Assembly (NCBI RefSeq): GCF_041381155.1
Contig: NC_091135.1
Span: forward strand, 8,485,620 to 8,549,619
Origin: Argopecten irradians
Taxonomy: Eukaryota > Mollusca > Bivalvia > Pectinida > Pectinidae
Reading direction: 5' to 3'
Length of the DNA stretch: 64,000 nt
In this document: piece by piece, positions 78 to 58,605 of the stretch
Layout: each line of letters begins with the position of its first letter
How positions within the stretch are numbered: the first letter of the stretch is position 1
Position numbers and translations under genes: made by a program
Notes under the pieces: generated by a model
The model's database searches: none
Seen by the model: only the letters and a program-made list of their open reading frames with translations
What the model was told of the DNA's origin: nothing

Positions 78-172
78 CTACCAAGAACTAGTGCATTACT
101 TTGATGTAACACCGCAGACCGCCGCCGCCGCTCCAGCCAAGAGGGCTTTGAATCCCTTCCTTTCATCAATCT
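78..172 (+). CDS. G1 exon a1 (linker)
   Basis: Acceptor TTTCAG at 72-77, donor GTAAGT at 173. Reads YQELVHYFDVTPQT, an alanine-rich stretch, then AKR-ALNPFLSSI. The KR pair is the candidate cleavage site. The final T supplies the first base of a split Leu codon. Confidence 0.85.
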
Positions 173-3100
173 GTAAGTGTCCACATTAAAAATCGTACCT
201 TTTAAATTCTGAACTATTTTAGAGAAAAGCCTTAACGTTTTAATCACCAAAGCAAAGAAAATATTGTTTATGTCGGGTATTACAAATAATTATGAGCACA
301 TTAGATTAAGCAAGGTGGCCAGTTATAAAATGTTTCATTTCTTTTTTCATAATGATTGTTAGGATTTTGGATTTCCTCTTCATAAAACTTTTAAACTTAT
401 TTTCTGTTTTGTCCAGTAAACGTGTTCCACGCTGATGAGATCAAGACCATTGTCACAGATTTGTACCAGTCCATGGGAACTGATGAGCGTGAGGCCGAGT
501 GTGAGTCTGAGTGTAACAAACTTGTCGAGAGTCAGGCCACTGGCTCCCTCAACACCATTGGACACACTGCCTGTCCCCTAATCTGTCACTCGTAAGTTAT
601 GTTCGATATGATTGATGATTTTGATTGGCAGTAATGTACTTAATGCCCTATTGACAAATAAGTTAATTTAAAGACAGATAGATATATCATAATTATATTA
701 TATTATATTTCTAACCACGAAATTAACTTTATTATCCACTACCCATCCGAAACGGCTTTTGTTTTTTTAAATGGAAATGAAAAACGAGATTGATGATTTT
801 GTCGCAAAAGTTATTGACTTAATGTTAACACTGCACGTATCATCACCTTCTAAACAATTGTAAAATTACATGCGAATTTCATAACGCGGGTCGCATAATG
901 TTTCCCGCCATCGTCCTAATCCTTATCTTAGATTAACGAAATACATTTTCATATGTTATTGATTATTGAGGTAGTGAGAAAACTGTTTTGAAAGGTTGTT
1001 TCGGAAAGGAGGTGGGCCTTTAGATACGAAGCATCTTAACTCAACATATGTCATTACATATAATGGATATCATTACATAACCTTTCCAAATTTGGTCTTC
1101 GCAACATTGAAAGAAAGATGAACCTATACGGTTTTTATCACCATCTAAAGATTCCAGGAACTCGTCCATCATTTCGACATCAACCAACAAACCGCCGCCG
1201 CTCCAGCCAAGAGGGCTTTGAATCCTTTCCTGTCATCCATCTGTAAGTTTCCACGTTTAAAATCATACCAATTTAAATTAGCGATGACTATTTTAGCAAA
1301 AAAAAAACAAAACATTACTATATTCATTAAAAAGATCTTGTTTTAAGTCAGGTGTTATTTTTTTTCAAACAGAAGAGTTAGAGATTTTGATTTTCATAAC
1401 AAGTTTTTTCCAAGGACAAAACCCTAAACCTGATGCTTCAATTTGCAAATTCAAGCAATGAATGAAATTCTAAATCTGAAACTAATAAGCAGTTAAGAGT
1501 CTGTAAAAATGATGTAGTTAATAACTCATCTTTATATCATCGACAAAAACGTCTTTTGCCTTTACATACACATTTTATCTTCATGATACCAGTGGTATGT
1601 GTATTTGAAGCAGACACAGGATATGGCTTATTTATATAAGTTCATAAGGGATGAAATACACGATCATTCACTTTGCGTACATCGTGTACTGTTTCTGTTT
1701 GGCCAGTGAATGTGTTCCACGCTGACGAGATTAAGACCATCGTCACAGATTTGTACCACTCTATGGGATCTGATGAGCGTGAGGTCGAGTGTGAGGCCGA
1801 GTGTAACAAACTTGTCGAGAGTCAGGCTACTGGCACATTGAACACCATTGGACACACTGCCTGTCCTCTGATCTGTCACTCGTAAGTAATGTTCGATATA
1901 ATTGATATTTTTTAATTAACTGCAATGTACTTAATGTCCTATTGGCAAATAAGGTAATTTAAAGACAGATAGATATATTAGATTTCTAACCATGGAACTA
2001 ACTTTAAGATCCACTACCCTTCCGAAACGGCTTTTGTTTTATAATATGGAAATGAAAAACGAGATTGATACTATTTTCGCAAGGATATTGACTTAATGTT
2101 AATACTACACGTCTCATCACCTTCTAAACAATTTAATTAAAAATTAAATTAAATGTGAATATTCATAACGCGGGTCACATTATGTTTCCCGCCCTCGTTC
2201 ATATCACGGCGCGTTAGTTGATTGTCACTGCGTTAAACGCCAAAATATCGAAATGAATCCTTACTGTAAACATGGATTACGCACGAAAAAAACATTGTTT
2301 GGTATTGTAACCTCATTTTAGACCATCGACACTCATATTCATATGTTATTAATTTTAATGAAACTATTTTTTGTTTTGTTTCGGAAAGGTTTTGTCTCTT
2401 TCAATTAGTTAAATTTGAATTGAATACGCGTGTTTAGATGGAATGGATATCGTGCCGTAATTTTCAAAATTTGCAATTTCCAATGGTTGAAGAAAGATGA
2501 ACCTATAAGCTTTTTATCACCATCTAAAGATTCCAGGAACTTGTCCATCATTTCGACATCAACCAACAAACCGCCGCCGCTCCAGCCAAGAGGGCTTTGA
2601 ATCCCTTCCTGTCATCGATATGTAAGTACCCACGTTTAAAATCATACCAATTTATATTAGCGATGACTATTTAAGCAAATAAACATTACTCTATTCATTA
2701 AAAAGATGTTGTTTTAAGTCAGGTGTTATTTTTTTCACTCAGAATAGTTAGAGATTTGGATTTTCATAACGAGATTTGTCCAAGGACAAAACCCTAAAAC
2801 TGATTCTTCAATTTGCAATTCAAACAATGAATGAAATTCTAAATCTGAAACTAATAACAAGTTAAGAGTCTGTAAAAATGATGTAGTTAATAACTCATCG
2901 TATATCATCGACAAAAACGTCTTTTGTCTTTACATACACATTTTATCTTCATGATACCAGTAATATGTGTTTTTGAAGCAGAAACAGGATATGGCTTACT
3001 TATATAAGTTCATAAGGGATCAAATACATGATCATTTACTTTGCATGCAGCGTGTACTGTTTCTGTTTGTCCAGTGAACGTTTTCCACGCTGACGAGATT

Positions 3101-6100
3101 AAGACCATCGTCACAGATTTGTACCAATCTATGGGAACTGATGAGCGTGAGGCCGAGTGTGAGTCCGAGTGCAACAAACTCGTCGAGAGTCAGGCCACTG
3201 GTTCCCTCAACACCATTGGACACACTGCCTGTCCTCTGATCTGTCACTCGTAAGTAATGTTCGATATAATTGATGTTTTTTAATTACCTGCAATGTACTT
3301 AATGCCCTATTGGCAAATAAGGTAATTTAAAGACAGATAGATATATTAGATTTCTAACCATGGAACTAACTTTAAGATCCACCACCCTTCCGAAACGGCT
3401 TTTGTTTTATAATATGGAAATGAAAAACAAGATTGATAATATTGTCGCAAAAGTTATTGACTTAATGTTAATACTACACGTAACATCACCTTCTAAACAA
3501 TTTAATTAAAAACAAAATTAAATGTGAATATTCATAACGCGGGTCACATTATGTTTCCCGCCCTCGTTCATATCGCCGCGCGTTAGTTGATTGTCACTTC
3601 GCCAAACGCCAAAATAGCGAAATTAATCTTACTGTAAACATGGATTACGCACGAAAAAAAACATTGTTTGGTGTTGTAACCTCATCTTAGACCATCGACA
3701 TTCATTTTCATTTGTTATCAATTTTAATGAAACTAATATTTTTTTGTTTCGGAAAGGTTGTGTCTCTTTCAGTAAGTAACATTTAAATTGAATACGCGTT
3801 TTTACATGAAATGGATATCGTGCCGTTATTTTCAAAATTTGTAATTTCCAATGTTTGAAGAAAGATGAACCTATACGGTTTTTATCACCATCTAAAGATT
3901 CCAGGAACTCGTCCATCATTTCGACATTAACCAACAAACCGCCGCCGCTCCAGCCAAGAGGGCTTTGAATCCCTTCCTGTCATCCATCTGTAAGTACCCA
4001 CATTTAATATCGCACCATTTAAATTGATAATAACTATTTTAGAGAAAAGCATTACACAATTCTTCATAACATGTTGTTTTAAGTCAGATATTGAATTTGT
4101 TTTCACACTTATTACACGCAATAATTATGAATTTGGATTTGATATTCACATAACCGTAAAACTGATGCTTCTGTTCCCAACTAAAAATGAATCCATTTCC
4201 AAACTTAAACAAACTGATAAGCAGTTAAGAGTCTAGTGACTAACTCATTTATATCTCATCACAAAAGCGTAACTCTTCTCGGCTTCTGCCTTTGCATATA
4301 CATTGTAACTTCAGGACGCTATTAGTAGAATGTGTAGTTGAAGCAGAAACATAATTTGGCTTACTATATAGGTAACAACCAAAGGGATCAAATGCATAAC
4401 TATTCACTTTGAATACAGCGTATACTGTTTATGTTTGACCAGTGAACGTGTTCCATGCTGATGAGATCAAGACCATCGTCACAGATCTGTACCACTCTAT
4501 GGGATCTGATGAGCGTGAGGTCGAGTGTGAGGCCGAGTGTAACAAACTCGTCGAGAGTCAGGCTACTGGCACATTGAATACCATTGGACACACTGCCTGT
4601 CCTCTCATCTGTCACTCGTAAGTAATGTTGGCTATAAGGGATGCTTTTGACCGGTTGTATGGACCTAACGTCCTATTGACAAATATGGCCATCTATGGAC
4701 GGACTCACTTGTATGCCGTGTGTTGCGTGTATAGATGTCTGTAAAATGTGGGAGAATGCGTTATATTCGATATTTGTCTCTCTACAATAGTGCAATCTCG
4801 TGCCTATTTAATATCGATAAAACAATACACCAGAGTTACAAGGACAGCACACCCAACCTGGTTGCATTATGCTGACAACGGGATAGCCAGTCCAATTATT
4901 ATTCATGCGAACGCTAAGCAACAGCAGACAAATAATATCTTTAACGAATTTGTTGTGATATCGATTCATGTCAGAATGTTAATGTGGTTACTTTTTTCTG
5001 AAAAAGATGGTCCTCTACGTTAAAACTGTCTCGAATTATTTCCTGCATTTATTGGTATTCAAAATGAGTTAGATATAGCCTCTGAAACTTAAACTTTTTG
5101 TCTGCATGTACAGATTCCAGGAACTCGTCCACCATTTCGACATCAACCAACAAACCGCCGCCGCTCCAGCAAAGAGGGCTTTGAATCCCTTCCTGTCATC
5201 CATCTGTAAGTATACACGTTTAAAATCGTACTATTTAAATGATATAAGTATTTGAGATAAAAGCATATTACACGATTCTCTACCAAAGGATAAAAAAATA
5301 TTGTTTTAAGCCAGGTAAAAAGTTTTTTTCCAAAGTCAGAAATATCTTAATTTGATACTTCTATTTTCAACTAATATGCAAGTAATAAACAGATGTAGCG
5401 TCTCTAATAATGATGTCGTTTGTTTTCTATACTATCGATATACCAAAAACTTTACCCTTCTGGTATTCTGCCTTTGCATACACATTTCAACCTTAAGATA
5501 CGAAGGTGCTGTTCGTAGTGCACGCAGATGCACATGACTTACTTATATATAGGTAGTTCCTAAGGGATCAAATATATGACCATTCACTTTGCAAACTGAT
5601 AACTGTTTCTGTTTGACCAGTGAACGTGTTCCATGCTGATGAGATCAAGACCATTGTCACAGATCTGTACCACTCCATGGGATCTGATGAGCGTGAGGTC
5701 GAGTGTGAGGCCGAATGTAACAAACTTGTTGAGAGTCAGGCCACTGGCACATTGAACACCATTGGACACACTGCCTGTCCTCTGATCTGTCACTCGTAAG
5801 TAATGTTGGCTATAAGGGATGTTTTTGTCGGTTTCTTGTCTTGTGAACACTTAATGACGACAACCGTGCGTTGCGTGTGTGGATGTCTGGTACATTTATA
5901 CGGTATATTTCAGTTGTGCCTCCCTCCAATAGTGGAATTTCCTGCATTAAGCAAATTTTTTCAAAGAGAAGTTACATACATGTATCTGTCTATCAACGAA
6001 CTGTCTTGAATTATTTCCTGTTTTTGTGGTATTCAAAATGAATTTGACATAGTTTCTGAAACTTGAAATGATTTTGCTTTCTCTTTTATTTTGTTTTTAA

Positions 6101-9100
6101 TTTTCAATTTTCTGTTATAATTGAATATATAGATGTGGTGATATATTCCGTACCGATGGTTTGATTTCGATCTGTTTTTAGTTCACAAATATTAAAGGTC
6201 TTAGCACGAAACACTTGAAAATCGTAACATTTATATATCTTTCATTTCTTTTAATGTTATGGATAGCATAACGTGTTTTCACAATTTGTGATATTCAAAG
6301 TTGAAAGTTGAACGTATAGGTTTTTATCACCATATGCAGATTCCAGGAACTCGTCCATCATTTTGACATCACCCCTCAGACTGCTGTTGCTCCGGCTACT
6401 GGTACCAGTGCTAAACGCTCTTTTGGATCAACCTTCATGAACTCCATCTGTAAGTTGTATACTGAAATACTTCAGCACAGTACTTTAAAGAAACTTTTAA
6501 TCATTGTAACCCTAATTTAATGTGATACTACGATGCAAATAAAACTATTCTATTTTGTTCTGGATCTTTCTTGTTGAAATTAATTGAAACTGCATTTGAT
6601 TTTATTATTCATATGTGTTCAATTGAGGAAACTTTGACATATGTCTGAAATATCACATTTTGAATTATTAACGAAAAAAATGTAAAAGAGGATGCAAACA
6701 GAAGTTTATAATGATTTTTATCTATTTTTGTAAACTATAGTCTCTATGGCGTTTCTTTTTCTCTACAAGTGAACGTGTTTCACGCTGACGAAATCAAGAC
6801 TATCGTCACTGATCTGTACCACTCCATGGGATCTGATGAGCGTGAGGCTGAGTGTGAGAAGGAATGTAACAACCTAGTTGACACCCAGTTCAGCAGTGGA
6901 ACGACCAACACTCTTGGCCACACTGCCTGTCCCCTGATCTGTCATTCGTAAGATCACAGTTAATCTCTTTTCTCAGTCGAACAAAATATGCGTGCGGATT
7001 TAAAATTTTCATAATTCATTTAGTTTTTCCTACCGTCTGTGATATCGTTGTTTTTCCTTTCGAAACTAATATAAAGCAACCAGGTTAGGTGCGTTGTTTG
7101 GTGTCTTACGTAGTGAGTTAGAACTATAGAAAGAACAAAGCAACACCAAACGAATACACCACAGCATTACAAAAATAGACGTTCACACTCTAGCAGTACA
7201 TGGCATCCAGTTTGACCGTCCTTAGTTGACCCTAGCTGTTAAGACCAGGGAACCAACCATTGCTCTTTTAATAATGGAACTCGTGCATTTAGAAGTGTTA
7301 TTTCTAACATGCTTTGATTCTTTGTTATCTATAATATATTTGAAAATTTATTTTCTTGTTTGATTAAATAACGTCCTATCAACAGTTATGGTCAAGCTAA
7401 TCCTGGAATTATATATTCTTCACATAATGGTGTCAGTGTAATTTAAAAATATTGTTTTATTTTAATTTACAGATTCCAGGAACTTGTCCACCATTACGAC
7501 ATCACCCCACAGACGGCTGTTGCTCCGGCTACTGGTACCAGTGCTAAACGCTCTTTTGGATCAACCTTCATGAACTCCATCTGTAAGCTCTATACTGAAG
7601 CACTGTAGCATAATATTCGAAAAAAACAACAACATTTATTCGTTGCAACCCATATTTCATCTCATATAATGTTATTCAATATTGCAAAAAAAACTTTGAT
7701 AGGTGTTGTCTGTTTTGTTCTGGATCCTGTTTGTTTAAATTAATTGAAAACACATATATCTGGATTTTATCATTTATTTGTGTTCAATAGAGTACATTTG
7801 TCCGAGTTATTTAAATAACGACAGGAAAAAATAGAAAATAAATGTAAAAAGAAATACATTACTGTTTTAACACATTTTGCAGTCCCTTTCGTGTTTCTTT
7901 TTCTCTGATAGTGAACGTGTTCCACGCTGACGAGATTAAAACAATCGTCACAGATCTGTACCACTCCATGGGATCTGATGAGCGTGAGGCCGAGTGTGAG
8001 AAGGAATGTAACAACCTAGTTGACACCCAGTTCAGCAGTGGAACGACCAACACTCTTGGCCACACTGCCTGTCCCTTGATCTGTCATTCGTGAGTTTGTT
8101 TATTCGTTTGTGTCAGTATAAATTGTCACAGTTGATCATTTCTCCCAGTTTTCACAATATATTTAGTTATCCTTACCGTCCTCATTATTGCTGTCCTTCC
8201 TTTCGAAACTAGAATAACGTGACCGGGTTAAGTGTGTTTGTTTGTTTGATTAACGTGCTATTAACAGCTATGGTAAGGTGAGAGCTAGGTGTGTTTTTGG
8301 TCTCTATGACAGCATGCTTCACTATATAAAAAGCAATAGACACAATAAGAATACACCACAGCCTCCCAAAACATACAAACATTCACACATGCAGCACATG
8401 GAATCAAATGGATGCCGTCCTTTAATGGGATTTTATATTCTTTACAAAATGGTGACCGAGCAATGTTGATATGGTATTTTCTTTTTAATATAGATTTCAG
8501 GAACTTGTCCACCATTACGACATCACCCCACAGACGGCTGTTGCTCCGGCTACTGGTACCAACGTCAGGCGATCTCTCGGGTCATCCCTCTTGACTTCCA
8601 TTTGTAAGTCTTTTATTTTTTGTGTGTGTACTTACTGCAACTTGTAATTGTCCATTTGCATTCAAGTTCAATCCGTTTCCTGTTCCTGTTCAGAAATTCA
8701 TATTTTCTATTCGTAAGATTTTAAAAATATCCATGTATTTCTGATTCATTTCCTGCTGCTGTAATGTCCCTGTTAAGATTATACCCCGTCCATATTATGT
8801 TTGTATATAGTTATATAATGACGACACTAGCTGAAGTAATGTTTAAAAAATAACAGGCTATACAATAAGACTCGCATATTCACAATTGTAATGTACAATA
8901 TGGCTTGCAGATTCACAATTATAATATACAATATGGCTTGCACATTCACAATTATAATGTAAAATATGGCTTGCACATTTACAATTATAATATACAATAT
9001 GGCTTGCACATTCACAATTATAATGTACAATATGGCTTGCACATTCACAATTATAATGTACAATATGGCTTGCACATTCAAAATGATAATGCACAATATG

Positions 9101-12100
9101 GCTTGCACATTCACAATTATAATGTACAATATGGCTTGCACATTCACAATTATAATGTACAATATGGCTTGCACATTCACAATTATAATGTAAAATATGG
9201 CTTGCACATTTACAATTATAATATACAATATGGCTTGCACTTTCACAAATATAATTTACAATATGGCTTGCACATTCACAATTATAATATACAATATAGC
9301 TTGCACATTCACAATTATAATATACAATATGGCTTGCACTTTCACAATTATAATGTACAATGTAGCTTGCACATTCATAATTATAACATACAATATGGCT
9401 TGCACATTCACAATTATAATGTAAAATATGGCTTGCACATTTAAAATCATAATGCACAATATGACTTCCACATTCACAATTATAATCTTCAATATGGCTT
9501 GCACATTTACAAATATAATGTACAATATGACTTCCACATTCACAATTATAATATAAAATATGGCTTGCATTTTCACAATTATAATATACAATATGGCTTG
9601 CACATTCACAATTATAATATACAATATGGCTTGCACATTCACAATTATAATATACAATATGGCTTGCACTTTCACAATTATAATGTACAATATAGCTTGC
9701 ACATTCACAATTATAATATACAATATGGCTTGCACATTCACAATTATAATATACAATATGGCTTGCACTTTCACAATTATAATGTACAATATGGCTTGCA
9801 CTTTCACAATTATAATGTACAATATGGCTTGCACATTTACAATTATAATATTACAATATGGCTTGCATATTCACAATTATAATGTACAATATGGCTTGCA
9901 CATTCACAATTATAATGTACAATATGGCTTGCACATTTACAATTATAATATACAATATGGCTTGCACTTTCACAATTATAATGTACAATATGGCTTGCAC
10001 TTTCACAATTATAATGTACAATATGGCTTGCACATTTACAATAATATTAGTTGTCTGTATGATTTATTTACGTCCTATTAACAGCTAGTAAGGACCGCCT
10101 ACCATGTATGTGGTATGTAGTGTGTATAAAGTGCAAAGCGCATAATGAACATTATAGTTCTTCTTTGATTGCAAGAGTCGAAAACATCTATTTATGAAAT
10201 TTATGCACTGTAAACTTGCACAATGTAATGTTCAATACGATTTGCACATTCACAAATACAATGTACAATACGACTTACACAATTAGGTATAATGAACAAA
10301 CTCCGTTCCATGTGTTCTCTTACTTCATCAGTGAACGTTTTCCACGCTGATGAGATCAAGACCATCGTCACAGATCTGTACCACTCCATGGGAACTGATG
10401 AGCGTGAGGCCGAATGTGAGCGGGAATGTAGCAATCTTATTGAAACACAATTCCACGCTGGATCTCTCAACACAATTGGACACACATCATGTCCTCTTAT
10501 CTGCCATTCGTAAGTTTTTCTTTGATTGTTTAACTTTGGTTGTAATAGTCGAAAAACATTATATATATGAAATTTATGTACTGTAAAATCCTTATTTGTA
10601 AGTCTAATGTATGATTATATGGAAATATGCCTGCAGAAATGACTTTGAAATACTAATTAACCCCGTAAATATGTAAATTGAAATTGTAGACCAAATTTGA
10701 TTTTAAGATGTGACCGTATGTGCACAAGGATTTTTGACATTACTGCCAAATGTTTATAAAATCATTTTCAGCTCTTATTTGTGCTAGTAAAATTACAAAC
10801 TCAAAATGTTGTTAATTTTTTATGGTGAGTGGAAAAATTAAAAACTCTTTTTTGCACATTTATATCATACTTTGTGTTCGAAGATATTTCCTGAAATTTG
10901 AAGCTAATTGACTTCTTATTACAAAAAATACAATAAATAGACTGACCGATCATTTAGCACTATATCTAAACGGAATAGATTTCTTAACATGACTAAAGGG
11001 AGATCAATCAAATTATTTTCTCTAACTCTCAATGGTCAGGAACATTGCTTCCTAAATGATTTGAAATGTTCAAATTAAATGAAACAAATCAGATCATTTT
11101 AGGGCATCATCCTTGTTAATATGTTTTTAAATTTCCCTTCTTATTCTTACATGCCCTGTGTTTATAAAAAGTTTTAAATGAATCAGATCTTGATATATAA
11201 AATAAGAATATGTTACCGATTTTATCAAGCCGGACAATATGTTAATGACAATTATATAAAGAATACGTGTAATGACTAGATGATACGGATCCAGCCTTGC
11301 AGATAGTGGTAACAAAAAACCTGCTGACCCAGTTGCAAGATAAGGCAACTAAATTTGAAATCTATACTTTTTATGTCTTACTAACCCTTAACACTGTCTT
11401 ACTGTTGACCTTGAACTAAGCATTCTCCCCTGTAAGTTAGCGTCTGTGTGTCGGCCAGGGGACAAAACAAAGTAATAAAAAAAGTGTTAGCTTCTGCTCC
11501 TGCTTAAAACTAAGCATAAAAAGAGAAAGATGACTGGTTTGCCCGTTGCCAGTGACCGCGAGTAGGGTGTGCTGTACGGTGTCTTCGGCAACATTCTTCA
11601 GAGGAATAGCACTACAAAACCGGCAACAATCCCATCGTTATAATGAACACAAACACATCGCAATATCCCAACACATACAGACAATCATCACACACTCAAC
11701 AAATTGCATACAAAGAATGCCGTCATTAAATGGCCTCAGATTAAACCAACAAAGCAAATAACTAGCTTTATTATTACGTTAACCATGTTTACGTATTCAG
11801 TTGATGTATATAGTATCAAAAGAATAAACTTGTGTCATTAGATTTAGATTTATTTCATTTACAGATTCCAGGAGCTCGTCCACCATTTCGATATTGCCCC
11901 CACTAGTGCTAACCCCGCCCCAGCAACATCTACCAACAAACGGGCATTGAACCCCCTAGTCAGCGCTGTATGTAAGTAGTCTAGGAGTCTAGATTACCGT
12001 TTTATAATTCAGTGCTACTGTTACATACCAGGTATGTAATCAGTGTATTATGACGTGTATGCTTGACCACTGGTTCTCGATATCTGACTCTCTGTGTATA

Positions 12101-15100
12101 CCCTGTAGCATCCATACATTATTTTCCACCTTAATAATGAACCGATGAACAATATGTTGTACTTTATAAGCATGTTACAACTAAAGGACTTGCGGTACAA
12201 AAATCCTTACAATTCAGTTTCAATTTTTGAATTTAGCATTTCGTCAATAGTGTCAATATGAGGGGAAGTAGTTCTGCTATAGATGACCTTCAGTTGTTGT
12301 CGATATGCTTAATCTTTATTTCCATGACTGATATTTTCGAATGCAACTACACATTTTCCTTAACTAAACAATGCCCATCGTCCCTTATAATATTCATATT
12401 ATTTTATCAAAAATAAAGTGTTCTCTACATTTCGGGTAACAGGTAATACTCTTTTGAAAATATCACACCATATACAGGACAGCCGATATATTAATTATCC
12501 ACGATCACACGTCTCATTCATATATTGGAATCTTAATTCATCCCCCATCTACAAATGTTGACGTTTACAAAAATGGCATAAAACGGATTTCCATAGCAAA
12601 ATCTTACCTATAAATTAAAACCGTTACTAACGTCAAGCGCATTAAGAAATCTGAAATGTTTTGAATCTTTTGTTTGTTTGATTATGTTAACGTCCTATTA
12701 ACAGTCAGGGTCATAAAAGGACGGTCTCCCATTTGTGTCGCGTGTGTGAAGTGCGAGGTGCGTGTTTGGGAGACTGTGTTTGAATCAAATAGGACTTTAA
12801 TTGAATTGTAAGAACGGCAGCACAGTGAAAAGGACTTTCGCACTGATTCTAATCAACAAAGTAATGTGTGTTTCCTGGGGATGTGTATACAAAGGGAAAC
12901 AACTCCCGATCAACCATTCTTGAAAACCTACTGTCATCATTTGAGCTTTTATATGTAATTCGGACATTGTATTGTAGTGAACATTTTCCATGTTGACGAG
13001 ATCAAGACCATCGTCACAGATCTGTACCACTCCATGGGATCTGATGAGCGTGAGGCTGAGTGTGAGAAAGAATGTAATAACCTGGTTGACACTCAGTTCA
13101 GCAGTGGAACGACCAACACTCTAGGTCATACCGCCTGTCCACTTGTTTGTCACTCGTAAGTATCGTGCACAGTCGATAATTTCCGTAATGTTTCGTAACC
13201 ATATGAAATGTTCAGGATTGCATTTTTCTTATCAGAATACGGTTATCTAGGTGTTCTATGTTCTAAATATTACAGTATATCTGATTAGTTAGCTTTCATA
13301 GACATTCAAGTTTGTGTAAGGAATGTCATGCTATGCTTAAATTGTTCATGTTTCAATTACAGTTTTTGCAATATGAGTATATTGTACTTAAATATTGTGT
13401 AAGGAATGTCATGCTATGCTTAGCATTGGTTCTCAAAATATCGAATTTAATATTTTTGAACCATGTAAAAGTACATATCAATGACTCAATTGAATTTAGA
13501 GTAATATACAACTACATGATATCCCCTGTGCTTAGTTTAAACAAGTCAAGCTGTGTTAACTTAAAAACTGATTAGCTTATATACACGTACCAGAAATTAA
13601 TCACTAAACAACATTGATCATTTTAAATTGAACAGTCGGGCAAGGATGGCTAAAGTCGGTAAAAATGGTGTGAATGTATCCAGTATAATTTCTTATGAAA
13701 TGGAAAAATAAAATCTCTCGTCAAAATCTGTCTGCGTACGAAGAAATTAATTTAAAGTATGGAAATTCTAAAACGTCCTCCCGGCTCACTATGTCCGTGG
13801 TTACATTTCCACGCAGCCTCGCTTTCAATGCTTTCAAATGTTCTTTGCTTTAATGGTCATAACTGGGTTACAAAGCAGAACTTGACCGTCGTATTAATAT
13901 GTGAGAACTTTTGGAAGGCCAATGAACGCATTTAGCTGGTTTTCTTTGCCCGACTATTCACTTTAACATTCAATTGTTTCTATCAAAAAGCAAAATTATA
14001 ACCAACAGTTGAAGTCTTTAGTGAGCTTTGAATACAACAATCTACATAATTTATGTGCACACTGATTTCTTTAGACCTGACATCCTATGGGACTGACAAT
14101 AAGATCCTAGGTTAATATGTCCGTACGACCTACTTGCGTAACACGTCCTAATATCTTACCTTATAGTTATGTATGTGATTGGTTCCATATGTTGGTATTA
14201 TCAAAAGCTCTGACGTCATGAGTCGAACGATCACGAATTGCGATTATCTTAATACATATATAGTAAGAAAGGTACAACATGAAGGACGTTTTAGCATCGG
14301 GTCATACCATTTTTATAAAGCACACACTAATAATATATGGCTTATAGTTCTTTTGTACACCAATGAAACAAGTATAATTTTATTTTACTTATGAGTTTTA
14401 GTGAGAGCTTATTTTAATTTCCGTTAAAATAGATTTGTTATTAAACCTGCACGAATGTTAACACTAATTTGTAAAGCATACATGTTTAACAACAGTCACA
14501 GGCTCAAATGTACTTAGAAATTTAATTCGTAATACGAATAGTGTGTTGCAAACGATGGAAATACACTTTGTCTTAATGTCGTTTATTTTTTAATTTACAA
14601 TCACTGACTCTGGTAGTTAGTACAAATTAAACAAAATCACAAACTACTGTTATTTTTGAATATCTAATATAAACCATAAATGATATCAGCCACACGATTT
14701 GCAGAAAACGTCCAAATAGGGTAATGAGAGATTAGCTATTCGATGTATGGGTATAAAATTAGTATTCAAGTCGAGTTATTCATTTTGCTTTATGCGAATC
14801 ACTATTATCGCTTATTGTTATGTAAACTAACATTGCCAAATTGAAGTTTATCAGGCCATAAATGGTATCTCATATGATGAAGCAAAGTGACCACGGCTAT
14901 CAATATCTGAACTAAGACCTAAAAAGAAGTTTTGTGATCAAGCGTAGATTGGAACAAGATCATAGACATAAATGGTAAATATAGATGCACAACGCGCAAT
15001 ATGAACCTAGTTTAATATTATATAACCAACCTTTACTTAATGCTTAGAAGTTGCGCTTATGTTTACAATATCTATTTTCAGATTCCAGGAACTTGTATCA

Positions 15101-15154
15101 CATTTCGACATTGCTTCTCAGACAGCTCCAGTGTCTGGTACGTCACAAGCCTAA
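78..15154 (+). CDS. G1: multi-domain secreted polyprotein gene, 3' part (19 exons in window)
   Basis: Exons: 78-172, 417-591, 1151-1242, 1707-1881, 2530-2621, 3075-3249, 3898-3989, 4443-4617, 5114-5205, 5621-5795, 6340-6449, 6770-6947, 7473-7582, 7912-8089, 8494-8603, 10332-10509, 11865-11971, 12978-13155, 15082-15154. All introns are GT-AG; type-a exons end in phase 1 and type-b exons in phase 2, giving 852 residues plus a stop without a break. The product has nine copies of a ~58-residue domain (C-x3-C-x19/20-C-x3-C) separated by 30-36-residue linkers of the form FQELVHH(F/Y)DI..QTA..PA-KR-(A/S)(L/F). The KR/RR pairs are candidate proprotein-convertase sites, so a secreted precursor cut into ~90-95-residue units is likely (inference). 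The 5' end with any signal peptide lies outside the window. The family is not recognised with confidence; a link to the molluscan digestive-gland vdg3-type proteins is only a vague recollection. AATAAA follows 51 bp after the stop. Confidence 0.85.
417..591 (+). CDS. G1 exon b1 (domain 1)
   Basis: Acceptor GTCCAG. The exon opens with TA, which pairs with the T of the preceding exon to make TTA (Leu), so the apparent TAA is not a stop. Domain NVFHADEIKTIVTDLY..., with CESEC and CPLIC cysteine pairs. Donor GTAAGT. Confidence 0.88.
1151..1242 (+). CDS. G1 exon a2 (linker)
   Basis: Acceptor CTAAAG, donor GTAAGT. FQELVHHFDINQQT, AAAPAKR, ALNPFLSSI: 30 codons plus split codons at each end, with KR in the middle. 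Confidence 0.87.
1707..1881 (+). CDS. G1 exon b2 (domain 2)
   Basis: Acceptor GGCCAG, donor GTAAGT. Domain variant with CEAEC and QATGTLNT, shared with domains 4 and 5, whereas domains 1 and 3 have CESEC and QATGSLNT. Confidence 0.88.
2530..2621 (+). CDS. G1 exon a3 (linker)
   Basis: Same 30-codon linker as a2, with AKR-ALNPFLSSI. Acceptor CTAAAG, donor GTAAGT. Confidence 0.87.
3075..3249 (+). CDS. G1 exon b3 (domain 3)
   Basis: Acceptor TCCAG, donor GTAAGT. Protein matches domain 1 (CESEC, QATGSLNT). Flanking introns are nearly identical to those around domain 2. Confidence 0.88.
3898..3989 (+). CDS. G1 exon a4 (linker)
   Basis: Same 30-codon linker with AKR-ALNPFLSSI; acceptor CTAAAG, donor GTAAGT. 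Confidence 0.87.
4443..4617 (+). CDS. G1 exon b4 (domain 4)
   Basis: Acceptor ACCAG, donor GTAAGT. Same variant as domain 2 (CEAEC, QATGTLNT). Confidence 0.88.
4650..4930 (-). repeat. Old ~530-bp retroposon (SINE-like) copy in G1 intron
   Basis: Diverged minus-strand match: 'AACGTCCTATTGACA', then the 'ATGCCGTGTGTTGCGTG' part, an 'AAGGACAGCACACCCAACC' stretch and 'GCTGACAACGGGATAGCC'. A partial equivalent lies after domain 5 (5815-5940), and traces ('CCTATTGACAAATAAG') sit at the same place after domains 1-3. This suggests the insertion predates unit duplication. Confidence 0.55.
5114..5205 (+). CDS. G1 exon a5 (linker)
   Basis: Acceptor TACAG, donor GTAAGT. Same 30-codon linker with AKR-ALNPFLSSI. 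Confidence 0.87.
5621..5795 (+). CDS. G1 exon b5 (domain 5)
   Basis: Acceptor ACCAG, donor GTAAGT. Same variant as domains 2 and 4. The downstream intron begins like that of domain 4, including an old SINE-like tract. Confidence 0.88.
6340..6449 (+). CDS. G1 exon a6 (longer linker)
   Basis: Acceptor TGCAG, donor GTAAGT. 36 codons: FQELVHHFDITPQT, AVAPATGTSAKR, SFGSTFMNSI. The six extra residues and the changed sequence after KR mark a second subfamily (units 6-8). Confidence 0.87.
6770..6947 (+). CDS. G1 exon b6 (domain 6)
   Basis: Acceptor ACAAG, donor GTAAGA. Variant with CEKEC and DTQFSSGTTNTLGHT, one residue longer between the cysteine pairs than domains 1-5 and closer to the single-domain genes. 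Confidence 0.88.
7078..7400. repeat. Old SINE-like fragments in G1 intron
   Basis: 7085-7245 resembles the 3' half of the ~530-bp retroposon on the + strand ('GTTGTTTGGTGTCTTACG', 'CAACACCAAACGAATACACC', 'GACCCTAGCTGTTAAGACC'). 7354-7395 is a minus-strand tail piece ('GATTAAATAACGTCCTATC'). Confidence 0.5.
7473..7582 (+). CDS. G1 exon a7 (longer linker)
   Basis: Acceptor TACAG, donor GTAAGC. Same as a6 except HHYD; TSAKR-SFGSTFMNSI. Confidence 0.87.
7912..8089 (+). CDS. G1 exon b7 (domain 7)
   Basis: Acceptor GATAG, donor GTGAGT. Protein identical to domain 6. Confidence 0.88.
8215..8435. repeat. Nested SINE-like fragments in G1 intron
   Basis: A + strand retroposon body ('GTGACCGGGTTAAGTGTG', 'GCATGCTTCACTATATAAAA', 'CAGCCTCCCAAAACATAC') is interrupted near its middle by a short minus-strand tail piece ('GATTAACGTGCTATTAACAG'). 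Confidence 0.5.
8494..8603 (+). CDS. G1 exon a8 (longer linker, RR site)
   Basis: Acceptor ATATAG, donor GTAAGT. FQELVHHYDITPQT, then ATGTNVRR-SLGSSLLTSI. The dibasic pair is RR instead of KR, which keeps the candidate cleavage site. Confidence 0.87.
8867..10041. repeat. 33-bp minisatellite, about 35 copies
   Basis: Direct tandem repeat of a 33-bp unit containing CAATATGGCTTGCACATT and CACAATTATAATGTA. Copies differ by point changes (CACATT/CACTTT, TGTACA/TATACA). Because 33 is divisible by 3 and the unit lacks stops in several frames, long artefactual reading frames of up to 199 codons occur on both strands. It lies in the intron between exons 8494-8603 and 10332-10509. Diverged units (10210-10290) resume after a SINE fragment. 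Confidence 0.95.
10047..10135 (-). repeat. SINE 3'-tail fragment at the end of the minisatellite
   Basis: 'ATTTACGTCCTATTAACAGC' followed by 'AAGGACCGCCTACCATGTAT' is the reverse complement of the common retroposon tail. It separates the main minisatellite from a few diverged units. Confidence 0.6.
10332..10509 (+). CDS. G1 exon b8 (domain 8)
   Basis: Acceptor TCATCAG, donor GTAAGT. Divergent domain: CEREC, SNLIETQFHAGSLNT, HTSCPLIC. All four cysteines are kept. The preceding 1.7-kb intron contains the 33-bp minisatellite. Confidence 0.87.
11390..11735 (+). repeat. Old SINE-like copy in G1 intron
   Basis: Diverged + strand copy of the ~530-bp retroposon lacking its 5' part: 'GGCCAGGGGACAAAACAAAG', 'GTTAGCTTCTGCTCCTGCTT', 'ACGGTGTCTTCGGCAACATT', ending near 'AATGCCGTCATTAAATGG'. 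Confidence 0.6.
11865..11971 (+). CDS. G1 exon a9 (linker)
   Basis: Acceptor TTACAG, donor GTAAGT. FQELVHHFDIAPTS, a Pro/Ala/Thr-rich stretch, then NKR-ALNPLVSAV. Confidence 0.86.
12672..12790 (-). repeat. SINE 3'-tail fragment in G1 intron
   Basis: 'GTTAACGTCCTATTAACAG' followed by 'AAGGACGGTCTCCCATTTGT' and 'GAGGTGCGTGTTTGGGAGAC': the minus-strand 3' end of the ~530-bp retroposon. Confidence 0.65.
12978..13155 (+). CDS. G1 exon b9 (domain 9, last)
   Basis: Acceptor TTGTAG, donor GTAAGT. LNIFHVDEIKT..., CEKEC, DTQFSSGTTNT, CPLVC. 'FHVDE' is the form used by the single-domain genes. Confidence 0.88.
13156..15081. other. Last G1 intron
   Basis: Spliced out between domain 9 and the terminal exon. 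It holds a short local duplication ('GTAAGGAATGTCATGCTATG' near 13316 and 13399). I see no other structured element. Confidence 0.6.
15082..15154 (+). CDS. G1 terminal exon a10
   Basis: Acceptor TTTTCAG. FQELVSHFDIASQT, APVSGTSQA, stop TAA at 15152-15154. It has only the first half of a linker exon (no KR and no N-terminal half), as expected for the last unit and equivalent to exon 4 of the single-domain genes. Confidence 0.85.
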
Positions 15155-15204: not shown

Positions 15205-15210
15205 AATAAA
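15205..15210 (+). other. G1 polyadenylation signal AATAAA
   Basis: AATAAA 51 bp downstream of the stop codon, matching the short 3' UTRs of the paralogues. Confidence 0.7.
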
Positions 15211-24000: not shown

Positions 24001-24962
24001 CTCAATAACCTGTTCACTCTACACGTCATCATGAAGTTTGCACTCTTCCTCGTTATTGCATTGCCTTTGGTAATGGCAGCACCCCATAAGAAGGCTTTAG
24101 ATCTCAGCTCGAACCCGTTCGTGAACAGTCTATGTGAGTCCAAAAACATCATTATCTACAATGTGTGTTTCTATATATTATTGTTTATTTTTGTAAATCA
24201 GGGCCGCGGTGGCCGAGTGGTTAAGATGTCCCGACATATTACCACAAGCCCTCCATCTCTGGGATGCGGGTTCGAATCCCAAAGTTGCCAGGTAATGAAC
24301 GCTGACCGGTGTTTTTTCTCCGGGTACTCCGGCTTTCCTCCACCAACAAACCTGGCACGTCCTTACATGACCCTGGCTGTTAATAGGACGTAAAACTAAA
24401 CAAACCACAAAAGTATATAGATCTTGCCATATTCCTTTTCCTTTTTAGTGAACGTTTTCCATGTTGACGAGCTCAAACAGCTGGTTACAGACTTGGTTGA
24501 CGATCTTGGATCTGATGCTAGGTTGAACGAATGTAGTTTAGAGTGTAACCATTTGGTAGATACACAGTTTTCTGCTGACACTGTCCCACACCGCTTGTCC
24601 TCTGGCTTGCCATTCGTAAGTATCCATCTAGAAAATTAAATAATGATATAGCCTTGCTTTCTCACACATCTTTTATATGTACATATGTGCAATTAATTGA
24701 ACAAAAAAAGTTTTATGACAAGTTTTGTTTGTTTGTTGATAAGCCATTAGTCTAATTTCCCTGGAACAAAAGAAAAATGTCATATTCCCAGTGTATTTAA
24801 ATCACACAGAAATAGATAACAAGAATGAAGACTTTTATCAAGAATGATAGTTTTATATTCATTTATTTCTTTCTCTGAATGGTTTATTCGTATATTTGTA
24901 GGCTGCAGGAGTTGGCGCACTTTTTCCATGTCCAAACTACAACTGCCGCACCAGCAGTGTAA
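24001..24962 (+). pseudogene. G2: single-domain secreted paralogue, frameshifted
   Basis: Exon 2 24001-24133 (ATG at 24031; MKFALFLVIALPLVMA signal peptide, APHKK, ALDLSSNPFVNSL), exon 3 24449-24615 (domain), exon 4 24902-24962 by homology. Exon 3 lacks 11 bp between two ACTGTC repeats, so the second cysteine pair (CPLAC) and the normal tail are lost. Splice sites remain, and the shifted frame continues through exon 4 without an early stop into a different tail ending near the AATAAA (25003). The CEKEC-equivalent is CSLEC. The altered exon-1 donor and a SINE in intron 2 also point to a decaying gene, but expression with a changed C-terminus cannot be excluded. Confidence 0.7.
24201..24412 (+). 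repeat. tRNA-derived SINE in G2 intron 2
   Basis: Head resembles a Leu/Ser-type tRNA with A box TGGCCGAGTGG (24210-24220) and B box GGTTCGAATCC (24269-24279). The body has 'CTCCGGGTACTCCGGCTTTC' and the tail 'CTGGCTGTTAATAGGACGT' plus an A/C-rich end. This is the common bivalve SINE type; it is not a working tRNA gene. Confidence 0.85.
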
Positions 24963-26299: not shown

Positions 26300-27215
26300 C
26301 GTTTTTGTGTCGCCTGAAACTATGTCTTCGTCGGCGGCGTCCGGGAAAAGATTTCCGCGCAATAACTTTAGTACTTAATATTGTCAGATTTCAATCAAAT
26401 GTTATATTGCGTTATATCAGTGAGATCCCGGATGGGTTTCATACTGGTCAAAATCCGTCAATATTTGCAAAATTTTCAGGACTTTAAAATCGTCAAAACA
26501 GATAAATCCATTGTGTCCACTAGATAACTGTAGTATTACTTGTCCGATTTCAACCAAATGTGATATATTGCTAAACACTAATCAGATCTCGAACGAATTT
26601 GATACTGGTCAAAATCTGTCAATATTTCCAAGAGTTTAAAAATCGTCAAAACTGATAAATCCATGGTTTCCGCTCGATAACTTCAGTATTTATTGTCCTT
26701 GTCCGATTTTAACCGAATTTGGTGTATTGCTTTACATGAGAGAGATCTCGGATTAGTTGATACTGGTTAAAATCCGTTAATATTTGCAAGAGTTGCGGGA
26801 CTTTACAATCATCAAAACAGAGTTTCCGTGTGATAACAATAATATTCATTATTCGATTATAACTAAATTTTGTATATTGCTTTATAACAATGAGATCTAG
26901 GATGGGTTTGATATTGGTCAAATCCGTCAATATTTGCAAGAGATAATTTCTTGGTTTCCGCTCAATATCTTTTGTATTTTTTTAGTATCCGATATCAACC
27001 AAATTATGCATATTATATGCAAATGATGTGCTTATAACAAAGATATATCTGATGGGTTTGATACTGGTCCAAAAGCCGTCAAGATGTACAAGAGTTACGG
27101 GACCTGAATACTTAACCTAATTATTAACAATATTTTATATTGTAAATAACTATTTTTGTGATGTTTTAAACTGCTGGACAGGCGACACATCCACTTCCGT
27201 GGAGTTCTTGCTTAA
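26300..27215. repeat. Tandem repeat element, ~150-bp units, inverted GTGTCGCCTG ends
   Basis: About five diverged units, each with 'TGTCCGATTTCAACCAAAT', 'GAGATCTCGGATGGGTTTGA'-like and 'ACTGGTCAAAATCCGTCAAT' segments. The block is bracketed by TGTGTCGCCTG (26305) and its reverse complement CAGGCGACACA (27178), which suggests one mobile or foldback-type unit with internal tandem repeats. Confidence 0.7.
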
Positions 27216-31792: not shown

Positions 31793-32231
31793 TATCCATC
31801 ATATCCACTTTTTCTTTCATACCTCGACGTTTTATTGCAATTTTACAACTATAATATCCCGCCATTTTAAAATAAATTCGAAGAAATTAGCGACTGGAAG
31901 TCAATTTTCCATTCATGAAAAAATACGTGATATTTTCAACACAAATTCCGTTGTTTACATCTTTTATAGTAAAACAAGTCATATTTGCAAAAAAAAAAAA
32001 AAAGTTAAAATTTTGGCGAGGAAAAAGAGATTTTGTTGACGCCGTGACGTCACGAGGCTTTATTGCATGGGTAGTCATGCAATACAGCCTCAGGCGACAT
32101 GAGTTTATTGCCCTAGACCAGCCAGTATTATACCCGTAGGTATGAATGAATGGTCAATAGAGCGAAACCTGTCTAATCTGACACATGGTTTCCCTACATC
32201 CTATTTGTAACTGTGAGTTGATCTCACGTGG

Positions 32232-39380: not shown

Positions 39381-40257
39381 GTCGATAGCCTGTTCAGTCT
39401 ACACATCATCATGAAGTTCGCTCTTTTCCTCGTTGTTGCATTGCCTTTGGTAATGACAGCACCCCATAAGAAGGCTTTAGATCTCAGCTCGAACCCGTTC
39501 GTGAACAGTCTATGTGAGTCCAATGGTTAATGTAATTGTAATCGGTTCAAACACAGAAATATTGTTGGAACGCCTTGAAAGGCCTCAAAGGAACAATATA
39601 CTTTTGTAACCGTATTAAGGCAAATAAAAATCAAACTGAATGGAAGACTATGTGTCTTGCCTCTGGACAAAATATCATCAGATGTTTTGGAACGAGTATG
39701 ATACTTGTTTTTTTAATCGACAATTATCAAGATTTATGTATATAGATCTTGTCATATTCCTTTTCCTTTTTAGTGAACGTCTTCCATGTTGACGAGCTCA
39801 AACAGCTGGTTACAGACTTAGTTGACGATCTCGGATCTGATGCTAGGTTGAATGAATGTCAGAAGGAGTGTGACCATTTGGTAGATACACAGTTTTCTAC
39901 TGGCACTGTCAACACACTGTCTCACACCGCTTGTCCTCTGGCTTGCCATTCGTAAGTATCCACGTGTAAAATAAAATAATAAATATAACCTCCCTTTCCT
40001 ACACATCTTTTATCTTACAATCAATTAAAAAACTGTTTCATGTTATTTGATAAACAATGAAGATCAATCCTTTTTATAAAATAAAATGTCTATGTCTGGG
40101 ATAATTAAAATTGAAACGTTTAATAATAATGATAGTGTCTGTAATAGTGAAAATTAGAATTTTATTTCTCTGAATGGTTATTCTGTAAATTTGTAGGCTG
40201 CAGGAGTTGGCGCACTTTTTCCATGTCCAAACTACAACTGCCGCACCAGCAGTGTAA
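39381..40257 (+). CDS. G3: intact single-domain secreted protein, 113 aa
   Basis: Exon 2 39381-39513 (ATG 39411), exon 3 39774-39951, exon 4 40197-40257 (stop TAA). The joined product is 113 residues: signal peptide MKFALFLVVALPLVMT, APHKK with a dibasic site, ALDLSSNPFVNSL, the domain LNVFHVDELKQLVTDLV... with CQKEC and CPLAC, and tail LQELAHFFHV plus TTTAAPAV. Introns are GT-AG with phases 1 and 2, the same as G1. A small secreted, probably helical, disulfide-stabilised protein is inferred; the target is unknown. Of the complete copies in the window it has the simplest undamaged structure. Confidence 0.85.
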
Positions 40258-46696: not shown

Positions 46697-47900
46697 GTCA
46701 ATAGCCTGTTCAGTCTACATATCATCATGAAGTTCACACTTCTCCTCGTTATTGCATTGCCTTTGGTAATGGCAGCACCCCATAAGAAGGCTTTAGATCT
46801 CAGCTCGAACCCGTTCGTGAACAGTCTTTGTAAGTAAAATGTGTTTGTATATACTGTAAATAATTGGGTTTTGTGATTGTTTAAATTTCAATTGCTATCA
46901 ACTATATCATGTATTCCATATTATTTTACATTTGAATTAATGTGTTTAATAACAACACATAATCATACATATTTCAGGTTAAAATGAATACGTTTTTCAT
47001 TTTGAAGGTTATCAAGGCATTTTTAGAATCAGCAATTGGTCAATGCAATTGTAATCGGTTCAAGCACTGAAATATAGTTGGAACGTCTTGCAAGGCCTCA
47101 AAGGAACAATATAAGTCTCTTCGGTGTCTGTTAGATTAACAGATTAACAGATAGTTAAGACTCTGAAGATAAAGTTTACTGGGGAAAATTGATTAATAAA
47201 GTTTGCTTCGTTCGTCTGTTACCGTATTAAGGCAAATGAAAAATCAGTCAAAATCCAGCTGAAAAGAAGGCTATGTGTCTTTTCTCCGGAAAAAATGTCA
47301 TCAGATGTTTTGGAACTAGTAAGAGACTTATATTTTTTTATCGACAATTATCAAGATTTATGTATATAGATCTTGCCATATTCCTTTTCCTTTTTAGTGA
47401 ACGTTTTCCATGTTGACGAGCTCAAACAGCTGGTTACAGACTTGGTTGATGATCTTGGATCTGATGCTAGGTTAAACGAATGTCAGAATGAGTGTGACCA
47501 TTTGGTAGATACACAGTTTTCTGCTGGCACTGTCAACACACTGTCTCACACCGCTTGTCCTCTGGCTTGCCATTCGTAAGTATCCATGTGTAAAATAAAA
47601 TAATATAGGCTTCCTTTCCTACACATCTTTTATCTGTACTCTCAATTAAAAATAGTTTTATGTTATTTGATAAACAATGGAGATCAATTTATTTTACTAG
47701 TAGCAAAACAAACCGTTAACTTTCTATCTCTAGGATATTGCAAAATGAAAACATTTAATAAGAATGATAGTTTCTGTATGATCGAAATTAGACTTTTATT
47801 TCCCTGAAAGGTTTATCTGTATATTTGTAGGCTACAGGAGTTGGCACACTTTTTCCATGTCAAACCATCAACAACAACTACTGCCACACCATCAGTGTAA
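46697..47900 (+). CDS. G4: single-domain secreted protein, 116 aa
   Basis: Exon 2 46697-46829 (ATG 46727), exon 3 47398-47575, exon 4 47831-47900 (stop TAA). Signal peptide MKFTLLLVIALPLVMA, APHKK, ALDLSSNPFVNSL, then LNVFHVDELKQL with CQNEC and CPLAC, and tail LQELAHFFHV plus KPSTTTTATPSV, three residues longer than in G3. Junctions and phases match G3. Transcription would start at exon 1 (44934-44968) and must skip the damaged decoy exon. AATAAA at 47940. Confidence 0.83.
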
Positions 47901-57266: not shown

Positions 57267-58605
57267 GTCAATAGCCTGTTCAGTCTACACATCATCATGA
57301 AGTTCACACTTCTCCTCGTTATTGCATTGCCTTTGGTAATGGCAGCACCCCATAAGAAGGCTTTAGATCTCAGCTCGAACCCGTTCGTGAACAGTCTTTG
57401 TAAGTAAAATGTGTTTGTATATAGTGTTAATAATTGGCATTGTGATTGTTGAAATTTCAATTGCTATCAACTGTATCATGTATTCCATAATATTTTAGAT
57501 TTGAATTAATGTGTTTATACCATTAACAATAACACATAATCATACATATCTCAGGTTAAAATGAATACGTTTTTCATTTTGAAGGTTATCAAGGCATTTT
57601 TAGAATCAGCAATTGGTCAATGCAATTGTAATCGGTTCAAGCACTGAAATATATTTGGAACGCCTTGCAAGGCCTCAAAGGAACAATATAAGTCTCTCCG
57701 GTCTGTTAGATTAACATAGCTTCTAAGCCTAATTTGCCAAATTAGAATCGTTTAATACAATTTACGACGCAAGTACATTTAAGACACCAACATCAACATT
57801 GTACTTCATTTCTACCTCATTTCGTACAAAGATTGGATTTACATTTTGAATATTTGTTTAATAAGACTTTGAAGATAAAGTTTACTGGGGTAAATTGATT
57901 AATAAAGTGTGCATCGTTCGTCTGTTACCGTATTAAGGCAAAAAATCAGTCAAAATCCAACTGAACAGAAGACTATGTGTCTTTCCTCTGGAAAAAATGT
58001 CATCAGATGATTAGAACTAGTAAGAGACTTATATTTTTTATCGACAATTATCAAGATTTATGTATATAGATCTTGTCATATTCATTTTCCTTTTTAGTGA
58101 ACGTCTTCCATGTTGACGAGCTCAAACAGCTAGTTACAGACTTGGTTGATGATCTTGGATCTGATGCTAGGTTGGTCGAATGTCAGAAAGAGTGTGACCA
58201 TTTGGTAGATACCCAGTTTTCTGCTGGCACTGTCAACACTCTGTCCCACACTGCTTGTCCCCTGGCTTGCCATTCGTAAGTATCCACGTGTAAAATAAAA
58301 TTATAAATATAGCCTTCCTTACCTACACATCTTTTATCTTACTATCAATTAGAAAACTGTTCAATGTTATTTGATAAACAATGGAGATCAATCTATTTTA
58401 TTAGACGCAAAACTTTACAATCCGCAAAATTTCTATCTCAAGGATATTGCGAAAATTAAATAGTTTAATAAGAATGATAGTGTCTGTATTAGTGAAATTT
58501 AGACTTTTATTTCTCTGAATGGCGTTTCCGTATATTTGTAGGCTGCAGGAGTTGGCGCACTTTTTCCATGTCCAAACTACAACAACTACCGCACCAGCAG
58601 TGTAA
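57267..58605 (+). CDS. G5: single-domain secreted protein, 114 aa
   Basis: Exon 2 57267-57399 (ATG 57297), exon 3 58098-58275, exon 4 58542-58605 (stop TAA). Exon 2 protein identical to G4 (MKFTLLLVIALPLVMA, APHKK). Domain LNVFHVDELKQL with LVECQKEC, where the other copies have LNEC, and CPLAC. Tail LQELAHFFHV plus QTTTTTAPAV. Junctions are GT-AG with the family phases. AATAAA at 58645. Confidence 0.84.

What the first reader, a model, noticed from the sequence alone, without database searches (positions are those of the whole stretch)
78..15154. Concatemeric polyprotein gene with dibasic sites between nine cysteine-pair domains
Nineteen exons alternate linker and domain in constant phase, and every linker between two domains carries KR or RR at the same place. 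The single-domain paralogues start their mature part with KK at the equivalent place. This is the layout of a precursor that releases many near-identical secreted units. The exon phases and motifs are seen directly; cleavage is inferred.
Basis: partly seen in the sequence, partly recalled or inferred. Interest (0 to 1): 0.85.

Follow-up and report, generated by a model that had tools for sequence, protein, structure and literature searches.

The report
Scallop ten-unit secreted polyprotein gene
A scallop gene appears to encode ten near-identical copies of a small secreted protein in one long chain, with a protease cutting signal between every two copies, which would let one transcript deliver many molecules of an undescribed protein.

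Summary
The window cuts the gene: the signal-peptide exon and first domain lie 1.5 and 0.7 kb upstream. The full model (A1) has 21 coding exons, 20 of 20 introns GT-AG, alternating phases 1,2,1,2, and an open 942-aa frame: signal peptide plus ten units of 87-94 aa, four Cys each. All ten dibasic sites are unit starts; none lies elsewhere. A second concatemer (A2; nine units, 837 aa, nine of nine dibasics at unit starts) and five intact single-unit genes share a ~163-kb cluster; two whole-genome searches found no member elsewhere. Most introns between units have lost alignable similarity while domain exons stay 71-96% identical, so the frame is old and constrained. Best explanation: a tandem-repeat polyprotein cut by a Kex2/PC-type convertase into ~9.5-10-kDa acidic, helical, probably two-disulfide proteins made in bulk. 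A single mRNA and cleavage are inferred, not shown. It works like nematode polyprotein allergens or tandem plant alpha-hairpinin precursors; membership in either is not supported. No Pfam family or PDB sequence matches the unit. Host: a scallop, very probably Argopecten irradians.

The parts
78..172 (+). A1 linker exon 1 (KR); upstream and outside the window are the signal-peptide exon (window -1545) and domain exon 1 (window -664 to -487)
417..591 (+). A1 domain exon 2 (CX3C...CX3C)
1151..1242 (+). A1 linker exon 2 (KR)
1707..1881 (+). A1 domain exon 3
2530..2621 (+). A1 linker exon 3 (KR)
3075..3249 (+). A1 domain exon 4
3898..3989 (+). A1 linker exon 4 (KR)
4443..4617 (+). A1 domain exon 5
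5114..5205 (+). A1 linker exon 5 (KR)
5621..5795 (+). A1 domain exon 6
6340..6449 (+). A1 linker exon 6 (KR, longer type)
6770..6947 (+). A1 domain exon 7
7473..7582 (+). A1 linker exon 7 (KR)
7912..8089 (+). A1 domain exon 8
8494..8603 (+). A1 linker exon 8 (RR)
10332..10509 (+). A1 domain exon 9
11865..11971 (+). A1 linker exon 9 (KR)
12978..13155 (+). A1 domain exon 10
15082..15154 (+). A1 terminal coding exon with stop; AATAAA follows at 15205 (29 other AATAAA/ATTAAA hexamers lie earlier in the gene, so this is weak evidence of the 3' end)
39411..40257 (+). intact single-unit paralogue Sa (3 coding exons, KK pro-site)
46727..47900 (+). intact single-unit paralogue Sb
57297..58605 (+). intact single-unit paralogue Sc
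24031..24962 (+). single-unit paralogue with disrupted frame in the domain exon (probable pseudogene)

Best explanation
A1 is one gene for a secreted tandem-repeat polyprotein. One signal peptide leads ten units of about 9.5-10.3 kDa into the secretory pathway; each unit folds as an acidic, mainly helical protein with two CX3C motifs (probably two disulfides); a Kex2/proprotein-convertase-type protease cuts after the KR/RR (and after PERR at the front), and a carboxypeptidase trims the basic residues, releasing ten nearly identical proteins starting STNPF, ALNPF, SFGST, SLGSS or ALNPL. The concatemer is a way to raise the dose of one product. Single-unit paralogues make the same kind of product one at a time, with a KK-terminated mini-propeptide. 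Shown: gene anatomy, frame, phases, motif positions, selective constraint, second concatemer. Inferred: single full-length transcript, cleavage, disulfide pairing, bulk-dose role. The biological role of the released protein (carrier, matrix or mucus component, or signal) is not settled; I favour an abundant extracellular carrier or structural protein over a cationic antimicrobial or a diversifying weapon.
For: Open 942-aa frame over 21 exons with phases 1,2,1,2... and GT-AG at 20 of 20 introns (donors had been chosen by a GT motif plus frame, so the GT side is partly by construction). Ten of 10 dibasics at unit starts in A1 and 9 of 9 in A2; 5 of 5 intact singles have their only dibasic at the same place. 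The 24 sites were collected with a list of the variants seen; 24 sites for 24 units means none was missed. Among the 13 that differ at DNA level, the two basic positions use 3 and 5 codons, while positions -6 to -3 and +2 to +7 show 3-6 residue types; +1 is always A or S, as restricted as the pair itself. Within A1, 12 of 12 unit pairs examined have dN/dS 0.00-0.20 (23 of 276 possible pairs examined over all genes). Domain exons are 71-96% identical in 45 of 45 pairs, while 24 of 28 domain-to-linker intron pairs are at 45-54% against 40-50% for shuffled introns. No homologue of the signal-peptide exon lies between units. Seven exon matches to the convertase P domain show that such enzymes are encoded in this genome. 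All 24 predicted units have 4 Cys, pI 4.58-5.25 and net charge -5 to -9.
Against: No transcript or peptide data were available. Introns make up 13,871 of about 16,700 bp, unlike the near-intronless repeats reported for other tandem repetitive polyproteins (PMC3079579, passages). Linker-to-domain introns are less decayed than the others: of 28 pairs, 21 are at 44-58%, six at 67-72% and one at 93% (no shuffle control for these). The sites are bare dibasic, not furin RX(K/R)R, so a neuroendocrine-type convertase would have to be present in the secreting tissue (recalled specificity). The last unit of A2 ends in a monobasic remnant. dN/dS across the two concatemers is less extreme (0.16, 0.49) and 0.34 between A2 units 1 and 2. 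The structure model is of modest confidence (pLDDT 64, exon-only peptide).
Confidence: 0.82

Rival explanations
1. An uncleaved modular protein: ten domains stay joined, and the KR/RR pairs are merely linker surface residues.
For: Cleavage is not shown; the linkers (APA, TGTSA) look flexible and would suit a beads-on-a-string protein.
Against: Dibasics occur at every boundary and nowhere else in two precursors, and single-unit genes keep the pair just after the signal peptide, where no inter-domain linker exists. The pair survives codon turnover that changes most of its neighbours.
Confidence: 0.12
2. Not one gene: a cluster of tandem genes, or an array used one or two units at a time through alternative promoters or splicing.
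For: Each domain-plus-linker module has equal phases on both sides, so skipping whole modules keeps the frame. Ten ATG-started frames with a hydrophobic stretch (some overlapping) lie inside A1 (no shuffle control and no splice check run). 29 AATAAA/ATTAAA hexamers lie before the stop.
Against: No signal-peptide homologue occurs between units, linkers have no stop and read in frame into the next unit, and only the last exon has a stop. Module skipping would shorten, not abolish, the polyprotein.
Confidence: 0.05
3. Assembly artefact or recent repeat expansion without function.
For: A2 units 2-8 are 98.9-99.7% identical over a 1,041-1,044-bp period, introns included, so the A2 copy number could be misassembled or allelic. 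A1 units 3 and 4 share introns at 93%.
Against: In A1, 24 of 28 domain-to-linker intron pairs (45-54%) and 21 of 28 linker-to-domain pairs (44-58%) have decayed while exons are constrained, which neither an assembly echo nor neutral repeats would give.
Confidence: 0.01

Closest known systems
Nematode polyprotein allergens/antigens (NPA, ABA-1 of Ascaris)
   Same: Large tandem polyprotein of near-identical helical secreted units cut at regularly spaced basic sites (PMC3079579, abstract start and passages).
   Different: No PDB chain matches one unit at E up to 10 and the profile finds only two weak unrelated ones; that the ABA-1 structure is in that collection is assumed. NPA units have helices A-G, one disulfide and sites of type K/R-X-K/R-R; here two CX3C pairs and bare KR. 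Such genes are described with very small or no introns in the repeats; here two introns per unit.
[quoted passage not shown]
   Same: Twin CX3C Cys motif, helices joined by a loop, several units in one precursor behind one signal peptide (PMC7191063, passages).
   Different: Units here are 87-98 aa with a predicted extra N-terminal helix and 19-20 residues between the CX3C pairs, against 35-50 aa in MiAMP2; animal, KR boundaries, introns between units; acidic.
Molluscan neuropeptide precursors (e.g. FxRIamide, APGWamide of Patinopecten yessoensis)
   Same: Signal peptide and many repeated products in one scallop precursor (PMC5996578, passages).
   Different: Products there are short and amidated; here whole four-Cys proteins of ~90 aa without a C-terminal Gly before the basic pair.
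Filaggrin
   Same: Tandem polyprotein released by proteolysis, named beside NPAs in PMC3079579 (passage).
   Different: Intracellular, no signal peptide or such Cys motif (recalled).

Membership tests
Tandem-repeat polyprotein precursor cut at basic sites (general kind) | One open frame, one signal peptide, several near-identical units | tested here: met
   942 aa, 10 units, 21 exons
Tandem-repeat polyprotein precursor cut at basic sites (general kind) | Regularly spaced basic cleavage motif at each boundary | tested here: met
   10 of 10 in A1, 9 of 9 in A2, none elsewhere
Tandem-repeat polyprotein precursor cut at basic sites (general kind) | Proven proteolytic release | not testable with these tools
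   no proteomic data
Nematode polyprotein allergen family | Sequence relationship to ABA-1-type units | tested here: not met
   no PDB match at E<=10 for one unit; profile gives only two weak matches, E 0.97 and 3.4, neither an allergen; best Pfam E-value for three proteins is 0.11 and below cut-off
Nematode polyprotein allergen family | Very small or no introns in the repeated part | tested here: not met
   two introns per unit, 244-1926 bp
Alpha-hairpinins | XnCX3CXnCX3CXn Cys motif | tested here: met
   C28, C32, C53, C57 invariant in 14 domain sequences
Alpha-hairpinins | Two antiparallel helices with unstructured tails | tested here: inconclusive
   model shows three helices but pLDDT is 64
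Alpha-hairpinins | Cys1-Cys4 and Cys2-Cys3 disulfides | not testable with these tools
   needs peptide chemistry or a good structure
Saposin-like and other known folds | Significant fold match | tested here: inconclusive
   32 Foldseek matches at E<=10, none at E<=0.001, best E 3.6, low-confidence truncated model

The most novel reading that the evidence does not exclude
An undescribed scallop secreted protein family, unrelated to known folds, that became concatemeric once by fusing the tail of one unit to the pro-site of the next, then split into two concatemer genes, one old and internally diverged in its introns, one freshly homogenised; a mollusc equivalent of nematode polyprotein allergens that keeps two introns per unit and thus contradicts the idea that such polyproteins shed introns for economy.
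Probability: 0.4. Interest if true: 0.65.

Novelty: new variant of a known kind. Interest (0 to 1): 0.5.

Why it matters
The cluster holds single-unit genes, an old ten-unit gene and a recently homogenised nine-unit gene side by side, so it shows how a polyprotein can arise: the linker exon reads as a C-terminal tail joined to the next unit's dibasic pro-site, in matching intron phase. It also points to a secreted product that a scallop may need in high dose and that has no Pfam family or solved relative, and it offers a test of the economy idea for tandem-repeat polyproteins, because this one keeps 20 introns.

Tried and rejected
Separate tandem genes: rejected for lack of any internal signal-peptide homologue or stop. 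Artefact: rejected for A1 by intron decay. Cationic antimicrobial peptide: unlikely at net charge -5 to -9. Diversifying toxin-like array: not favoured, since units are kept alike. Pfam gave only matches below cut-off (Snf7, DUF7326, Pex26; E 0.11-0.19), taken as chance. Fold search gave nothing significant. COX1 was not found in the assembly, so the host was placed by muscle myosin. Rfam and tRNA scans of the window found nothing. Four other ORFs of the window had no Pfam match at E 0.01.

Literature: six unit peptides were sought in the held papers, 0 papers found. Searches for similar polyproteins (20 of 31 papers listed, 11 of 11, 12 of 40, 10 of 5,455) listed none whose title or abstract start describes this gene; of those only PMC5996578 was opened, by passages. 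A search for the genome paper of Argopecten irradians (8 of 12 listed) did not show it.

Relatives in other molluscs could not be sought, since no animal genome other than the window's own was on hand.

Full report
Where it is. The window is contig C2:8485620-8549619 of an 846-Mb genome in 1,508 contigs. Two exons of its muscle myosin match PDB chains 1dfk, 1dfl and 1b7t best: 103 of 103 residues identical in one, and 101 of 104 aligned residues in the next, the three differences being the first two and the last aligned columns, which I take as intron read-through. Chains 2ec6 and 2os8 score lower (217.6 against 223.8 bits; 203.4 against 227.3). That the first set comes from bay scallop Argopecten irradians and the second from Placopecten is recalled, not printed. 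I take the host as a scallop, very probably Argopecten irradians.

Gene model. Homology and splice sites give a signal-peptide exon at C2:8484074 (outside the window, -1545), ten domain exons, nine linkers and a terminal exon. Joined, these make 2,829 coding bases, 21 exons, 942 aa, one stop at the end, phases 1,2,1,2 throughout; 20 of 20 introns are GT-AG and sum to 13,871 bp. Donors were picked by a GT motif plus frame, so their agreement is partly by construction; the acceptors and the open frame are not. An AATAAA follows the stop at window 15205, but 29 AATAAA/ATTAAA hexamers also lie earlier in the gene, so this is weak.

Units. The 24 predicted units of A1, A2 and the intact singles have 87-98 aa after trimming, four Cys in two CX3C pairs, pI 4.58-5.25 and 4-7 His. 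In 14 distinct domain sequences 19 of 59 columns are invariant, among them all four Cys, F3 H4 D6 E7 and H50; 19-20 residues separate the CX3C pairs. AlphaFold2 on the domain exon alone gives three helices with mean pLDDT 64; no significant fold match. The best Pfam E-value over three proteins is 0.11, below cut-off; no PDB sequence matches one unit at E up to 10, and the profile finds two weak matches, E 0.97 and 3.4.

Dibasic sites. A1 has ten [KR][KR] pairs, all at unit starts; A2 has nine, all at unit starts; each of five intact single-unit genes has one, again at the unit start. Shuffles give 2.65 and 1.63 on average for A1 and A2. Of these 24 sites, one per unit, 13 differ at DNA level; the pair is written AAG AGG, AAA CGC, AGG CGA, AAA CGG, AGG AGG, AGG AAG or AAG AAG, while positions -6 to -3 and +2 to +7 show 3-6 residue types each; position +1 is always A or S. 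This is what a protease site under selection looks like. The sites lack the P4 Arg of furin, so a PC1/3-, PC2- or Kex2-type cut is the better guess (recalled specificity). Seven exon matches to the convertase P domain occur in the genome.

Age and constraint. Domain exons of A1 are 71-96% identical in 45 of 45 pairs. Introns were compared for units 2-9 (domain-to-linker, 28 pairs; units 1 and 10 left out) and for the first eight linker-to-domain introns (28 pairs; the ninth left out). Of the former, 24 are at 45-54%, one at 60% and three at 80-93%; of the latter, 21 are at 44-58%, six at 67-72% and one at 93%. Shuffled domain-to-linker introns give 40-50%, mean 45; no such control was run for the other set. 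Of 23 unit pairs chosen for dN/dS out of 276, 12 within A1 give 0.00-0.20; the others are A1-A2 0.16 and 0.49, A2 units 1-2 0.34, A2 units 2-5 0.00, singles 0.08-0.22, one undefined and three saturated. Units 2 and 4, and 3 and 5, encode identical proteins despite dS 0.37 and 0.24. So products are kept alike, which favours dose over diversification.

Cluster and origin. Whole-genome searches with an array domain (28 matches) and a single-unit protein (44 matches) find members only in C2:8484074-8647474, apart from one match on C10 with E 4 and a stop inside, taken as chance (the tool calls such counts lower bounds). Members: A1; A2 at C2:8605606-8616079 (19 exons, 837 aa); five intact singles; two broken singles; three orphan first exons. 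In a DNA tree the singles separate from all concatemer units (100/100) and the A2 units form a group (95/96); units 6-10 of A1 group together (95/91) and the rest of A1 is unresolved, 9 of 18 inner branches being open. This fits one origin of the concatemer but does not prove it. A2 units 2-8 are 98.9-99.7% identical over a 1,041-1,044-bp period, so A2 grew or was homogenised recently. The A2 terminal exon is 84-89% identical over 70 nt to A1 linkers 6-8, and equally close (89% over 61 aligned nt) to its own linker 2, so the linker reads as a tail exon continued into the next pro-site and N-terminus, without telling which linker came first.

Comparison. The layout works like nematode polyprotein allergens (PMC3079579, abstract start and passages) and like the 12-fold Sm-AMP-X hairpinin precursor (PMC7191063, passages). 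It shows no sequence relation to the former and lacks their near-intronless repeats; with the latter it shares the twin CX3C rule and the tandem layout. A neuropeptide survey of another scallop (PMC5996578, passages) describes multi-copy precursors of short peptides; its supplementary precursor list was not read, so I cannot say this gene is absent there.

Open. Transcript continuity, cleavage, disulfides, tissue and function are untested. The function offered, bulk extracellular carrier or structural protein, rests on dosage logic, acidity and purifying selection, and is the weakest step.

Noticed in passing
C2:8605606-8616079 (window +119987 to +130460; L035, L036): Second concatemeric gene A2: nine units, 837 aa, 19 coding exons, eight of eight linkers KR; units 2-8 about 99% identical including introns.
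   Followed up: yes
45531, 55850, 63350: Orphan first exons with signal peptides but no domain exon of their own found downstream; the first two have lost the normal exon end.
   Followed up: partly
24031-24962 and C2:8646522-8647474: Single-unit copies whose domain exon no longer reads through; probable pseudogenes.
   Followed up: partly
8861-10046: 33-bp tandem array of about 36 copies inside the intron between linker 8 and domain 9 of A1.
   Followed up: no
C2:8483717-8483779, 306-357 bp upstream of the A1 start codon (outside the window, L029): TATAAAA, then CAACAG/GTAAGA 51 bp on, as of a short non-coding first exon; a CAG or TAG acceptor-like site precedes the ATG closely in A1, A2 and the five singles. 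Inferred only.
   Followed up: partly
32154-32588 (-) and 33689-34069 (+): Two related ORFs of 144 and 126 aa in opposite orientation without a Pfam match at E 0.01, perhaps remnants of a transposon.
   Followed up: partly
36634-37263 and 26457-26794: Imperfect tandem repeats of 146 and 153 bp.
   Followed up: no
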